Below are positions 34,330 through 56,683 of a stretch of 64,000 bases of DNA, one piece after another. The stretch spans positions 1,468,001 to 1,532,000 of the forward strand of contig NC_088943.1 in assembly GCF_033473495.1 (NCBI RefSeq), read 5' to 3'. Made by a program: the position numbers and the translations under genes. Numbering within the stretch: position 1 is the stretch's first letter; each line of letters starts with the position of its first letter. A model generated the notes under the pieces. It saw nothing but the letters and a program-made list of their open reading frames with translations. It was not told where the DNA came from and searched no databases. The DNA is from Cercospora beticola (Eukaryota; Ascomycota; Dothideomycetes; Mycosphaerellales; Mycosphaerellaceae).

Positions 34330-36106
34330 TTAGATCACGTAAACTCTTCCCTCCAGAGGAGCCAGCTTCTGCCCAGCATTGCTTCCACCGGAGCTCAGGA
34401 GCAATTTCGCTGAGCTATAAGCAGCTTCGACGCCGCTCTCCTGCTCCTCCGTGGTGAAGTTGAGTACGACAATCGCCTCTTTATCCCCGTACCTTTTCGA
34501 GAAGGTGAAAGTGTTTGGATTCTCGGCATCCAAGAGCTTGAATTGGCCATACACAAACAACTCCTTGTGCTCTTTGCGAAGAGCAATCATATCCTTCCAG
34601 AACGCCAGGACCGATTTGGGATTCTTCTCCTGAGCAGCAACATTATACGACTCATAGTCATCGTTCACACGCATCCAGGGCTCTGCTTGGGAGAAGCCTG
34701 CGTTCATGGAAGAGTCCCATTGCATTGGAACCCTGGCATGGTCTCTTGCCAGACGTTGTAAAGCGCGCTTTGTCCCTGCGAGAGTCTTCTCGTCGCCGTT
34801 GTGGGTACGCTTGATGTACTCGTACCAGTTCTGAGATGATAGATCCTTGTATTCTTCAATCGGCCAGGAGAGTGGGACATTGCGAAGACCAAGCTCTTGC
34901 CCTTGGTACACGTAGAGTGTTCCGCTGAGGGTGACGAGAAATAGGGCAAGCATTCTGGCGCTGGCGTCGCGGAACTCCGGTGCATCGGATGCGAAACGAG
35001 AGATCGATCGGGCCTGATCGTGGTTCTCCAAGAAGGCGGTAGTCCATGCGTCCGGATGTTCCATGATCTCTTGGGTTCTAGCAATCGCCTCCTTGAACTG
35101 AGCAAGAGAGAAGCTTGGTTCCACGTTCGGGTCGACTCCGCACTCACGAGAAACGTCCACGACATCGAACTGGAAGACCATATCCAGCTGCTTCTCTGCT
35201 GCCGACACGTATTTGATCACCTTGGCCATATCTGGTGTGTTGGGACATTCGCCGACTGTGAAGGCACCATATTTCTTCATGACAGCATTCATCTCGGAGA
35301 GGAACTCATGCATACGAGGCCCGTTGCAATACTGAAGACCAGCGGGTTGGGCCTCTGCACCAGGATCAGTGATTGGGGCATCCTTCATGTCACCTTTGCT
35401 GTACATGTTCACAGTGTCCACGCGGAAGCCATTGACGCCTCTCTTCAGCCAGAACTCGACGATGTCCTCCCAAATGGCTTTCCTCACATCAGGATTCTCC
35501 CAGTTGAGGTCAGGCTGCTCCCTCGCGAACAAGTGGAGATAGTATTCTTGCGTCTCTTCGTCCCATGTCCAGGCTGGCTGACTGAAGTTCCCGCGCCAGT
35601 TGTTTGGTGCAATGCGGTTTCCTTGCGAGTCATATTTGGCTGGTCTCCAAATGTACCAATCTCGTTTCGAATTTGTCTTGGACGAGCGAGACTCTTTGAA
35701 CCACTTGTGTTCGCTCGAAGTATGGTTAACGACTAGATCAAAGATGATCTTCAGATCCCTCTTGTGGCACTCTTTGATAAGTCGTTCGCAATCATCCAGG
35801 TTCCCATACGGAGGATAGATCGCCTGGTAATCGCTGATGTCTAGGCGAAGTAGGTAAGCAAGTGCCCAAGCGTTTTTGTGCTAACTACCTACCATATCCC
35901 ATGTCAACCTGTGGCGAGTCAAAGTGTGGGCAGATCCACACTATAGCCACTCCAAGGCTCTTGATGTAATCCAGCTTTTGGATAATACCTTCAAGGTCTC
36001 CCATGCCATCGTTGTTGCTGTCATTGTAGCTTGCAGGGTAGATCTGGTAGACAACTCCCTCTTTCCACCAAGCATCAGCATCTCCTTTTAGCAATCTTCC
36101 TGGCAT
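34330..36106 (-). CDS. Alpha-glucosidase, GH13 (maltase/isomaltase type)
   Basis: Two exons, 36106-35893 and 35840-34330, joined by a 52-base intron (QVDMGY|DISDYQ); 574 residues, normal for an intracellular maltase. It hydrolyses alpha-glucosides such as maltose or isomaltose. GH13 regions seen: DLVVNHTSSEHKWF (region I), GFRVDTVNM with the nucleophile Asp (II), FTVGECPNT with the acid Glu (III), and FLENHDQARSISRF with the transition-state Asp (IV). The N-terminus is WWKEGVVYQIYPASYNDSNNDGMGDLEGI. No signal peptide is seen. It points away from the alpha-glucoside permease at 54.98 kb; the two look like a MAL pair now separated by transposons. Confidence 0.96.
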
Positions 36107-36813
36107 ACTGAGCTGTCTTCTTTACAGGTGATTAGATGAATGAGGAGAATGGGATTGTGTGAGCTGAGAAAAGGTAGTACAATCTCGTGAAGGAAACACC
36201 TTCAGTACCTACCTATCGACGATCATCGCTGGATACCCTTGCCAACCCTCAACGTACCGCACATGTGATGCTCGTCATCCTGCCACATCCTATAGCTTCA
36301 TGCTTGGTCCCCGCGATGTCGCTCAGAATGGTTGATAGCTTCACACAGCTGCAAGCAGCTGCACCAGCCGGCCCGACCTCAGAGCAGATCTGGCAGGAGA
36401 TGAGATGAGACTGAGAACCGCCGGCGAAATTATTTACTTGCGGTAAAATTCGCCGGTGATCCTCCTTGTACCTCCGCGTCTTGGCATGCACTAGCATCTC
36501 TTGTCTCCGACTTCCCCAATCTCACACCATGCCAACGAACAGGGCCGAAACGTGAAGTTTGGCGGTCCGTAAACATGCTTTCTGGGGAACGTCTCACGTG
36601 GGGCTGGTAGACTGCCGCGGGCGCTGCATTGGCTTCACTGTGAGCTGGGGAAACTTCAGATTCCCTGGAGAATCCTGACCTGGTCTGGACTTCGAGAACA
36701 GGACCCGAAGTGATCGCCCAAACTGCACTGCCGGCGCAACGCGTATTTCACGCCAGGATTGTCAGCTTATGTTTCTCATCACGAGCGTGACTACAAAACA
36801 GAGCAGAGCCATA
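36107..36813. promoter_or_regulatory. Left remnant of the divergent MAL promoter region
   Basis: 707 bases of normal composition between the alpha-glucosidase start and the transposon target site. It carries three SYGGRG (CreA-type) matches in 70 bases (36582-36587, 36598-36603, 36645-36650) and an inverted repeat at 36421-36456. Factor binding is inference. Confidence 0.45.
36421..36456. promoter_or_regulatory. Inverted repeat upstream of alpha-glucosidase
   Basis: CCGGCGAA at 36421-36428 is mirrored by TTCGCCGG at 36449-36456 around an AT-rich centre. A CGG-N9-CCG pair lies within it. Such CGG/CCG palindromes are typical Zn2Cys6 activator sites, but the spacing does not match the AmyR consensus. 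Confidence 0.35.
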
Positions 36814-36815
36814 TA

Positions 36816-36855
36816 GAAGTGTGCCCCACGTGACCCACAGAACCTCGTAAACCTA
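36816..36855 (+). repeat. Left terminal inverted repeat of the pogo element
   Basis: The first 24 bases are identical to the complement of the right end; 36 of 40 match overall. It keeps CA and TG dinucleotides, so it escaped RIP, and contains CACGTG. Confidence 0.9.
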
Positions 36856-36930
36856 CAATTCTAGTATGTTTTTGAGGTAGTGTTTCTCAACTATTACTAC
36901 ATGGATTGTTATAATTCAAACTGTATTATA

Positions 36931-54425: not shown

Positions 54426-54444
54426 TTAAGAAACGCTGAAACTA

Positions 54445-54484
54445 TAGGTTTACGCGGGGTTGTGGGTCACGTGGGGCACACTTC
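54445..54484 (-). repeat. Right terminal inverted repeat of the pogo element
   Basis: Complement of the left end (36 of 40 bases). It is unRIPed and includes a GTGGGG (SYGGRG-type) match at 54471-54476, close to the permease promoter. Confidence 0.9.
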
Positions 54485-54486
54485 TA

Positions 54487-54977
54487 CCAAGATTGGACCC
54501 CGCATATACGACTAGTTCTAACCAGTGACGGCCACCAAGAAACGCCACCCAACGACGTCAAACCCAATTCTGCGGCACACCTCTCGCCTCTCTCCCGTTT
54601 CTCCCTCTGGGCACCCAAACGACAAGCGGAACTTTGTGTTTGGGCTATGGCACGCATGGACATCTCGTGCGGCACTACCAAGCCTTCTCGCTTGTAGATT
54701 CATCAGTCGATGAGGCGTTGACCGAAACGGCCCTGCTCTCCCCACTCACGAAGAGCTTCCCCGAGAACGCCCAAACCGCTGGTATCTGGAGTCTCCAGCA
54801 CTAAGATGACCCCAGGATATAAGGTGGACTAGACGACTAGCTCAGAGACAGTTTCATCAGCATCATCAACTCCACTTCTTCACTTGAGCCTGCTAGTATC
54901 AGAGCAGAATACCAGGACTTGCATTGAGTGTCTAGCCTACATTACCAGAGCAACACACCTTCCTGGTATCGGACACA
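54487..54977. promoter_or_regulatory. Right remnant of the divergent MAL promoter region
   Basis: 491 bases of normal composition between the transposon end and the permease ATG. A TATA-like GATATAAGG lies near 54815. With the 707 bases on the left it would make a ~1.2 kb shared promoter region before insertion. Confidence 0.5.
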
Positions 54978-56683
54978 ATGGCGACCTTCTCGGAGAAGGT
55001 GGTTGAGCAGAAGGGTGATGTCGAGCGAAGGGTATGTTCTTCCTGTCTCTCGTAGCAAAAACATTCTCTAATGACTCTATTCAGGTCTCCATCACCGCGT
55101 CAATCGTCGGCGGCCAAGCTGAAGCAGCAGCGGCCAACGAAGCTGAACGCTCAAGAGGTCTCATCGAGTCCTTGAAACTCTACCCCAAGGCAGCAGCATG
55201 GTCGGTCCTCCTCTCCACGGCCATCATTATGGAGGGCTTCGACAAGACTCTCATCAACGGTCTTCTCGCTGTCCCTCAATTCCAGCGCGCCTTCGGTGAA
55301 CAACTTGCCGACGGTTCTTGGGAGATCACCTCCGCTTGGCAAGCTGGTCTCACCAATGGTGCCTTGGTCGGTGAGATTTTGGGTCTCGGACTCAATGGTA
55401 TCCTTGCCGACCGCTACGGATACAGGAAGACCATGATCGGCGCGCTCATCCTGACGGCGCTTCTGATTTTCATCGTTTTCTTCGTTCAGAGCCTACCACA
55501 ACTCTTGGTCGGCCTTGTCTTTATGGGAGTGCCGTGGGGTGTCTTCCAGACTCTCACTACCACCTACGCCGGTGAGGTCTGTCCTACCGGTCTGCGCCCC
55601 TACCTGACAACATACGTCAACCTTTGCTGGGTTATTGGCCAGTTCATTGGATCTGGAGTTCTCAAGGCTGTTGCAGAGCGCACAGACGAATGGGCATATC
55701 GCATTCCTTACGCTCTGCAGTGGGTCTGGCCGGTGCCTCTCATCATCGGCATCTATCTTGCTCCCGAGTCGCCCTGGTGGCTCGTTCGCAAGGATCGATA
55801 CGACGAGGCCAAGGCCTCCCTGATCCGCCTCACCTCCCGCAACACTCCGGACTTCAATCCCGACCATACTGTCGCCTCTATTAAACAGGTTAATGACTTC
55901 GAGGTGGCCGTCAGCGCAGGCACTTCATACCTGGACTGTTTCAAGGGTACCAACCTTCGACGAACTGAAATCGCATGCGGAGTATGGCTTGTTCAGACTG
56001 TCTGCGGTTCTACGTTCATGGGATACTCGACGTACTTCTACCGCCAGGCCGGTCTCGACGTCAGCCACGCTTTCACGCTCTCGCTGTGCCAGTATGCCCT
56101 GGGCGCCATTGGAGTTTTCGTCGCTTGGTTTTTGATGCCACACTTCGGACGTCGTAGCCTATACGTGATCGGCCAGGCTCTGCTCTTCGGACTCCTTCTC
56201 ATCATCGGCTTTTGCGGCATTGCAAGCGACACCAACAGCGCAGCACAGTGGGCTATCGGCTCTATGCTCCTGCTGTTCACCTTCACCTATAACTGCAGCG
56301 TCGGACCAATCTGCTATGCTTTGGTCGCTGAGATGCCTTCCACCCGTCTTCGCCAAAAGACTGTGGTATTGGCCCGTACTGCCTACCAAATCGGCGGCCT
56401 CATCAACAACATCCTCACCACAAGACAACTCAACCCTGGTGCATGGAACTGGGGACCTTTCTCCGCCTTCTTCTGGGCAGGCACTGGAGCTATGATGCTC
56501 ATCTGGTCTTACTTCCGTCTTCCAGAGCCCAAGGGACGCACATATGGTGAACTCGATGTTCTCTTCGAGATGCGCGTCTCCGCGAGGAAGTTCAAGAGCA
56601 CCATCGTCAACACTGATGAGCACATGGCTGCTGTTGTGGACGAGAAGCTCCCTGCAGATGAGTACGTTGAGGTCAAGGTTTAA
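54978..56683 (+). CDS. MFS alpha-glucoside (maltose-type) permease
   Basis: Two exons, 54978-55031 and 55085-56683, with a 53-base intron (GDVERR|VSITAS); 550 residues. The sequence fits the fungal MAL/AGT1 permease branch of the sugar-porter family: IIMEGFDKTLINGLLAVPQFQ in helix 1, NGILADRYGYRKTM in loop 2-3, VPWGVFQTLTTTYAGEVCP, LAPESPWWLVRKDRYDEA after helix 6, GTNLRRTEIACGVWLVQ and RGRRSL-type HFGRRSLYVIGQ in loop 8-9. EMPSTRLRQKTVVLAR and PEPKGRTYGELDVLFE close the family pattern. It faces away from the GH13 alpha-glucosidase at 34-36 kb, supporting uptake of the sugar that enzyme splits. Confidence 0.94.

What the first reader, a model, noticed from the sequence alone, without database searches (positions are those of the whole stretch)
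34330..56683. MAL-type divergent gene pair split by a 17.7 kb transposon nest
A GH13 alpha-glucosidase (minus) and an alpha-glucoside permease (plus) face away from each other, as maltase and permease genes do in MAL loci. Their intergenic region now contains 17.7 kb of RIPed elements. Without these, the two promoters would share ~1.2 kb. The insertion may uncouple co-regulation or bring heterochromatin next to both promoters.
Basis: partly seen in the sequence, partly recalled or inferred. Interest (0 to 1): 0.78.

Follow-up and report, generated by a model that had tools for sequence, protein, structure and literature searches.

The report
Maltase-permease gene pair split by transposons
In the sugar-beet leaf-spot fungus Cercospora beticola, an old neighbouring pair of sugar-use genes has been pushed 17.7 kb apart by one small DNA transposon that later filled up with mutated retrotransposons, leaving both genes and their near promoters intact: a clear example of a known process, and a natural test of whether such a pair still works together.

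Summary
An intact GH13 alpha-glucosidase (minus; maltase-type TVNM signature like A. oryzae MalT) and an intact alpha-glucoside permease (plus) face away from each other across a RIP-saturated island. The island is one TIR-to-TIR unit, 36816-54484 (17,669 bp), with TA at both ends; without it the ATG-to-ATG spacer is 1.20 kb. New here: the island is a 2.1-kb pogo/Fot1-like DNA transposon inflated from within. Its termini form ten correctly oriented pairs 2.1 to 51 kb apart in this genome, one a bare 2,120-bp copy. In our copy it is interrupted by Ty3/gypsy elements with probable chromodomains. RIP stops at the TIRs: the outer 60-120 bp of each end and both promoter stubs (0.7 and 0.49 kb) are largely unmutated. 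Regulatory uncoupling or heterochromatin spread is plausible but untested; no Zn2Cys6 activator motif was found in the window. Closest known process: 'genome fissuring' of Pyrenophora teres. New member of a known kind, with unusually clear anatomy.

The parts
34330..36106 (-). GH13 alpha-glucosidase gene (maltase-type), 2 exons (intron 35892-35841), 574 aa, intact
36107..36815 (.). promoter stub of the GH13 gene, 0.7 kb, composite RIP index negative (includes left TA of the target-site duplication, 36814-36815)
36816..54484 (.). whole inserted unit, TIR to TIR, 17,669 bp, TA at both ends
36816..37140 (+). left end of the pogo/Fot1-like element (element positions 1-329 in the RY alignment, which starts at 36812); outer part largely escapes RIP
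37133..46460 (.). repeat B: about 224-bp terminal sequence at 37133-37356, part of a second copy at 45643-45747 plus 46427-46460; displaces element positions 330-885; class not determined
38660..45492 (-). gypsy element A inside B: LTRs 38660-38897 and 45256-45492, RVT_1 and RNase H, probable chromodomain
45734..46433 (.). about 0.7-kb TRIM-like insert in repeat B, terminal repeats 45734-45912 and 46255-46433
46454..47089 (+). middle piece of the pogo/Fot1-like element (positions 886-1521)
47087..53885 (+). gypsy element C: LTRs about 47087-47286 and 53687-53885, RVT_1 and RNase H, probable chromodomain; candidate duplication TATA(A) against the bare copy
53886..54484 (+). right end of the pogo/Fot1-like element (about positions 1521-2120); TIR tip not RIPed
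54485..54977 (.). right TA (54485-54486) and promoter stub of the permease gene, 0.49 kb, composite RIP index negative
54978..56683 (+). alpha-glucoside permease gene, 2 exons (intron 55032-55084), 550 aa, intact

Best explanation
An ancient divergent maltase/alpha-glucoside-permease pair shared a 1.2-kb intergenic region. One 2.1-kb pogo/Fot1-like DNA transposon inserted there at a TA, 0.7 kb upstream of the maltase and 0.49 kb upstream of the permease. Being repeated, it was hit by RIP except over its outermost 60-120 bp. The RIPed body then became a landing site: a repeat (B), a chromodomain-type gypsy element (A) inside it, a small TRIM-like insert and a second gypsy element (C) entered it and were RIPed too, so the island grew from 2.1 to 17.7 kb while its borders stayed at the TIRs. 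Shown: gene pair, linkage in relatives, TIR/TA borders, element pieces in order, nested LTRs, RIP, spared borders. Inferred: order of events, orientation of the pair in relatives, chromodomain-guided landing in H3K9me3 chromatin, and the consequence (each gene now runs from its own 0.5-0.7-kb promoter, with shared elements no longer shared but both genes probably functional).
For: Terminus core 19 times against 0 for the control; 18 of 19 preceded by TAG. 12 left and 11 right ends (one right end partial, without its tip) form ten correctly oriented pairs, including a bare 2,120-bp copy. RIP-blind (purine/pyrimidine) alignment puts three element pieces in order in our island and, in another island, four pieces covering the whole element. 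DDE_1 in the bare copy (weak). RVT_1 E 2.4e-16 and 1.3e-21 in C and A, weak Chromo in both. RIP profile across ends. Repeat pairs differ mostly by transitions: transitions to transversions 12:2 (A), 7:1 (C), 13:1 (TRIM-like), 6:0 (B).
Against: DDE_1 (18.7 bits, cut-off 22) and Chromo (15.8 and 20.0, cut-off 25.1) are below curated cut-offs, as can be expected of RIPed DNA, but that is no proof. 556 bp of the element (positions 330-885) are missing at repeat B, so that step was not a clean insertion. An eleventh candidate pair (C5, 119 kb) failed: one of six samples in its middle has normal GC. One left end (C1:721307) has no partner. No sister-species DNA could be read, so adjacency rests on contig lengths and tags from capped lists, and orientation in relatives was not seen.
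Confidence: 0.86

Rival explanations
1. One reading: the island uncouples the two promoters or silences one or both genes through heterochromatin.
For: A shared bidirectional promoter co-induces both genes in S. cerevisiae, O. polymorpha and A. oryzae (PMC6070925, passages). Lowering HP1 or DIM-5 in Leptosphaeria maculans raised expression of genes lying in AT-isochores (PMC3945186, passages). The island is RIP-saturated.
Against: Nothing here measures expression. Both stubs have a negative RIP index and both reading frames are intact, which fits continued selection on function. Each stub keeps CreA-like SYGGRG sites (6 left, 6 right), but this is a loose, recalled motif.
Confidence: 0.35
2. 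The island is a single large composite or cargo transposon that moves as a 17-kb unit.
For: Paired TIRs with TA on both sides, ten pairs in the genome. The islands share much of their content: 28-92% of one island is covered by another in the RY comparison of six islands.
Against: Pair spans run from 2.1 to 51 kb and the element is broken at different points. In the comparison of six islands (ours, C8, two on C7, C1 at 827 kb, the diverged C9 one) no single match is longer than 6.9 kb, the size of one gypsy element (stretches of at most 10 kb cap this). Inner parts are LTR elements with copies elsewhere.
Confidence: 0.04
3. The genes were not ancestral neighbours; a rearrangement brought them to the two sides of a repeat island.
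For: Repeat islands can mediate rearrangements (general knowledge).
Against: Matching TA and TIR at both borders.
Confidence: 0.04
4. Assembly error placed the island between the genes.
For: Repeat-rich DNA can be misjoined.
Against: Both borders show the expected TIR and TA; the contig is 2.47 Mb, and five further islands fetched in full have the same TAG-TIR borders and sharp GC change.
Confidence: 0.03

Closest known systems
Genome fissuring by transposable elements in Pyrenophora teres (PMC5915480, passages seen)
   Same: TE insertion and expansion open AT-rich wedges between conserved gene blocks in a Dothideomycete; LTR and Tc1/Mariner elements are the largest contributors.
   Different: Here one fissure is resolved to a single seed transposon with TIR borders and a bare copy, and it opens inside a divergent metabolic gene pair. 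The passages seen describe fissures at genome scale.
[quoted passage not shown] sections 15 and 32)
   Same: Divergent alpha-glucosidase and alpha-glucoside transporter; TVNM residues as in A. oryzae MalT.
   Different: The shared bidirectional promoter is interrupted by 17.7 kb, and no Zn2Cys6 activator motif was found in the window.
Large RIP-affected regions (PMC7882544, passages seen)
   Same: Longer than 4 kb, product index above 1.15, substrate index below 0.75, composite above 0.
   Different: Nothing in kind.
Chromodomain gypsy retrotransposons landing in heterochromatin (MAGGY work, recalled; listings only)
   Same: Gypsy RT with probable chromodomain nested in RIPed DNA.
   Different: Targeting was not tested here.

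Membership tests
MAL cluster | GH13 alpha-glucosidase with maltase-type signature | tested here: met
   TVNM at IMA1 positions 216-219 by alignment to 3a47, as A. oryzae MalT in PMC6070925 Table 2; only these four of the nine signature positions were compared
MAL cluster | alpha-glucoside permease next to it | tested here: met
   Sugar_tr; P0001 named General alpha-glucoside permease, 100%
MAL cluster | divergent orientation | tested here: met
   minus and plus gene models
MAL cluster | shared bidirectional promoter | tested here: not met
   17,669-bp insert between the start codons; so it is filed as a disrupted MAL-type pair
MAL cluster | linked Zn2Cys6 MAL activator | tested here: not met
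   six-frame motif scan of the 64 kb printed no match; the activator's position varies between clusters
MAL cluster | induction by maltose, repression by glucose | not testable with these tools
   no expression data
pogo/Fot1 (Tc1/mariner) transposon | TIRs and TA target duplication (recalled definition) | tested here: met
   18 of 19 pattern sites preceded by TAG
pogo/Fot1 (Tc1/mariner) transposon | about 2 kb with a DDE_1 transposase (recalled definition) | tested here: inconclusive
   bare copy 2,120 bp; DDE_1 E 0.0014, 18.7 bits, below cut-off 22; the genome-wide DDE_1 search did not list it
Chromovirus (chromodomain Ty3/gypsy) | LTRs plus gypsy-type RT and RNase H | tested here: met
Chromovirus (chromodomain Ty3/gypsy) | C-terminal chromodomain | tested here: inconclusive
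   Chromo 20.0 bits (A) and 15.8 bits (C), cut-off 25.1
Chromovirus (chromodomain Ty3/gypsy) | integrase | tested here: inconclusive
   one piece of A gave no Pfam hit and the rve search listed nothing in the island; resemblance by eye only
Large RIP-affected region | RIP indices over thresholds for at least 4 kb | tested here: met
   every 1-kb window from 37,001 to 54,500; thresholds

The most novel reading that the evidence does not exclude
In this genome, gene-flanked RIP islands are seeded by single pogo/Fot1-like insertions on the promoter side of genes, including divergent promoters. Their spared TIR tips then act as fixed borders that neither RIP nor later chromodomain retrotransposons cross, so islands grow only from within and genes a few hundred bases away stay active.
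Probability: 0.3. Interest if true: 0.6.

Novelty: new member of a known kind. Interest (0 to 1): 0.42.

Why it matters
It is a natural experiment on why functionally linked divergent genes stay together: an old maltase-permease pair has lost its shared promoter to an island with known borders while both genes stay intact. The ten pairs of one element family, from a bare 2.1-kb copy to 51 kb, also give a within-genome series for how AT-rich islands start and grow, and where RIP stops.

Tried and rejected
Rejected: a single large composite element (spans differ, bare copy exists, no match above 6.9 kb between six islands); never-adjacent genes; pairing of C5:4601217 with C5:4720098 (one of six middle samples, L056, has GC 0.49 and composite index -0.94; the other five are AT-rich). 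The DDE_1 family search listed five matches, none in this element, and the rve search listed eight, none in the island. Enrichment of the gypsy elements in these islands is not claimed: 4 of 40 listed C copies and 3 of 16 near-full A copies (18 rows, 2 short ones dropped) lie in the ten spans, about 0.66% of the genome, but only 40 of 68 C candidates were scored, the lists favour copies like ours, and the genome's AT-rich fraction is unknown.

Promoter-side preference is only a hint. The longest flanking ORF reads away from the element at 14 of 18 ends. Using only Pfam hits over cut-off and the main family it is 9 of 10 (the other flanking ORFs of the main family had no hit or one below cut-off, and the two hits at the diverged family's ends, one away and one toward, are left out). 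Upstream regions tend to be longer than downstream ones (general knowledge), so the chance expectation is above one half. Tip sparing from RIP was measured on 16 ends chosen by a near-intact tip, which favours that result; three ends lying in AT-rich DNA are RIPed to the tip.

A scan of viral contigs for the permease found no relative. Sister-species loci could not be read: the genome collection here holds prokaryotes, and metagenome scans were capped at 0. Paper searches were made; no listed title concerns this locus, but that is no claim that it is not in print.
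Full report
The window is G000:C9:1468001-1532000 of a 36.07-Mb genome in 10 contigs. The permease is identical over its whole length to a protein named General alpha-glucoside permease of Cercospora beticola, whose longest contig (2,471,293 bases) has the length of C9, so the source is C. beticola.

Genes. The minus-strand GH13 gene has two exons, ATG at 36106 and stop at 34330, 574 aa. Its closest solved relatives are BaAG2 (E 1.6e-201) and yeast isomaltase (E 3.7e-163). At IMA1 positions 216-219 it has TVNM, the residues given for A. oryzae MalT in PMC6070925 Table 2, so a maltase is the better guess than an isomaltase; the other five signature positions were not compared. 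The permease has 550 aa: ATG 54978, intron 55032-55084, stop 56683. One search printed the permease frame off by one base; I corrected it by hand, and one search matches the corrected protein at 100% over its length. In the same genome the next best GH13 is 47% identical and the next best permease 45%, and no other GH13 locus lies beside a permease match. One weaker GH13 (C2:4951251, plus) lies 2.9 kb from a distant transporter match (C2:4955209, minus, 32% over 140 residues); it was not examined.

Ancestral linkage. The two homologue lists (the best 120 of 4,532 and of 7,856 hits) share 20 named organisms. In 19 the longest contig has the same length for both proteins; the miss is Venturia nashicola (1,895,920 against 1,885,460). 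In the 5 cases where tags of one series are shown for both, they are consecutive: Neophaeotheca g1250/g1251, Vermiconidia 000634/000635, Kalmusia 003346/003347, Dothideomycetes sp. NU457 6696/6697 and NU459 g6436/g6437. Two unnamed contig lengths (365,885 and 8,686 bases) also appear for both. The pair is therefore an old neighbour pair. Orientation in relatives was not seen.

Island borders. A perfect 26-bp inverted repeat bounds the AT-rich island. Its 23-bp core occurs 19 times in the genome at up to 3 mismatches and never in the reversed control. 18 of the 19 are preceded by TAG, that is TA plus an element starting G; the nineteenth has 3 mismatches, no TAG, and is not counted as a member. 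The inserted unit is 36816-54484, with TA at 36814-36815 and 54485-54486. Without it and one TA the start codons lie 1.20 kb apart.

What the unit is. The left-end query finds 12 left ends and the right-end query 11 right ends, one of them partial and without its tip; the other rows of both calls are short cross-matches of the shared TIR, the diverged C9 pair and one match near the end of C2. The ends form ten pairs in correct orientation: C5 2.1 kb, C1 3.1 (the one with the partial right end), C4 14.2, C9 17.7 (ours), C8 23.6, C3 24.2, C7 25.0, C7 29.9, C2 45.3 and C1 51.4 kb. One left end (C1:721307) is unpaired, and the C5 4601217/4720098 pair is rejected. Five islands of the main family (ours, C8, both C7, C1 at 827 kb), the two short copies and the diverged C9 island were held in full; C2, C3 and C4 only at their ends. 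The 2,120-bp copy is the bare element. Read with X at stops it gives a weak DDE_1 match (18.7 bits, cut-off 22); with TIRs and TA this points to the pogo/Fot1 group.

RIP-blind alignment. RIP makes transitions only, so sequences coded as purine/pyrimidine can be aligned as if RIP had not happened. In this code the island holds bare-element positions 1-329 (36812-37140), 886-1521 (46454-47089) and about 1521-2120 (to 54487) in order. The C1 51-kb island holds four pieces covering 1-2120, and the C8 island two pieces covering 3-2120. The islands are thus one element opened at different points. Compared with each other, six islands share 28-92% of their sequence but no single match above 6.9 kb, the size of one gypsy element (the stretches compared are at most 10 kb, ours 17.7): a common pool of inserts, not copies of one large unit.

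The inserts. A (38660-45492) and C (47087-53885) are LTR elements with RVT_1 (E 1.3e-21 and 2.4e-16) and RNase H, and weak chromodomain matches after the pol region (20.0 and 15.8 bits, cut-off 25.1). They lie in opposite orientation and are related in RT. B (37133-46460) holds A and a 0.7-kb TRIM-like insert, and displaces 556 bp of the element. Against the bare copy, C sits at a candidate TATA(A) duplication. Repeat pairs differ mainly by transitions.

RIP border. Per 30 bp, CA+TG counts in 16 unique-flanked ends are 4.4-4.9 outside, 5.6 and 3.3 in the first 60 bp of the element, 2.8 and 2.4 in the next 60, and 0-0.4 beyond 120 bp; three ends embedded in AT-rich DNA have 0-0.7 throughout. 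The 16 ends were found through their near-intact tips, so the sparing is partly selected for. The outer 1.5 kb of the 18 TAG-preceded ends has GC 0.50-0.55. Both promoter stubs have a negative composite index (-0.79 and -0.20).

Function. Nothing here measures expression. The modest reading is that both genes work from their own stubs. Uncoupling and heterochromatin spread remain open at about one in three.

Known or new. The process matches 'genome fissuring' in Pyrenophora teres (PMC5915480, passages) and large RIP-affected regions (PMC7882544, passages). What is added is a resolved seed, its bare copy, a size series and a broken MAL-type pair.

Noticed in passing
58595-62591: Cluster of at least four related RING-finger-like ORFs (shared start like MPTRDEFLANPGLVPQ), three on plus and one 550-aa ORF on minus; two of them were sent to Pfam and hit RING models; inverted repeats of 71-77% lie among them.
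   Followed up: no
L028/L029, G000:C9:1988341-2004205: A diverged relative of the TIR element spanning 15.9 kb, AT-rich and holding a copy of gypsy element C (99% in RY code), flanked by ORFs with a Zn_clus and a BTB_2 hit.
   Followed up: partly
L013, G000:C7:710765: A GH92 ORF reads away from the element and is open to within one base of it, so the insertion may lie in or at the start of that gene.
   Followed up: no
L009-L027 ends; L048, L049: TIR tips are spared by RIP where the flank is unique DNA (16 ends) and RIPed to the tip where the flank is AT-rich (3 ends) (selection of ends is a caveat).
   Followed up: partly
G000:C3:1007102-1007605: An open DDE_1 frame (574 aa, no stops) in this strongly RIPed genome; its relation to the element here was not tested.
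   Followed up: no
G000:C2:2082-2129: A TIR-like match about 2 kb from a contig end (E 1.7e-7), possibly a subtelomeric remnant.
   Followed up: no
G000:C2:4951251-4955634: A weaker GH13 match and a distant sugar-transporter match 2.9 kb apart, in convergent orientation.
   Followed up: no
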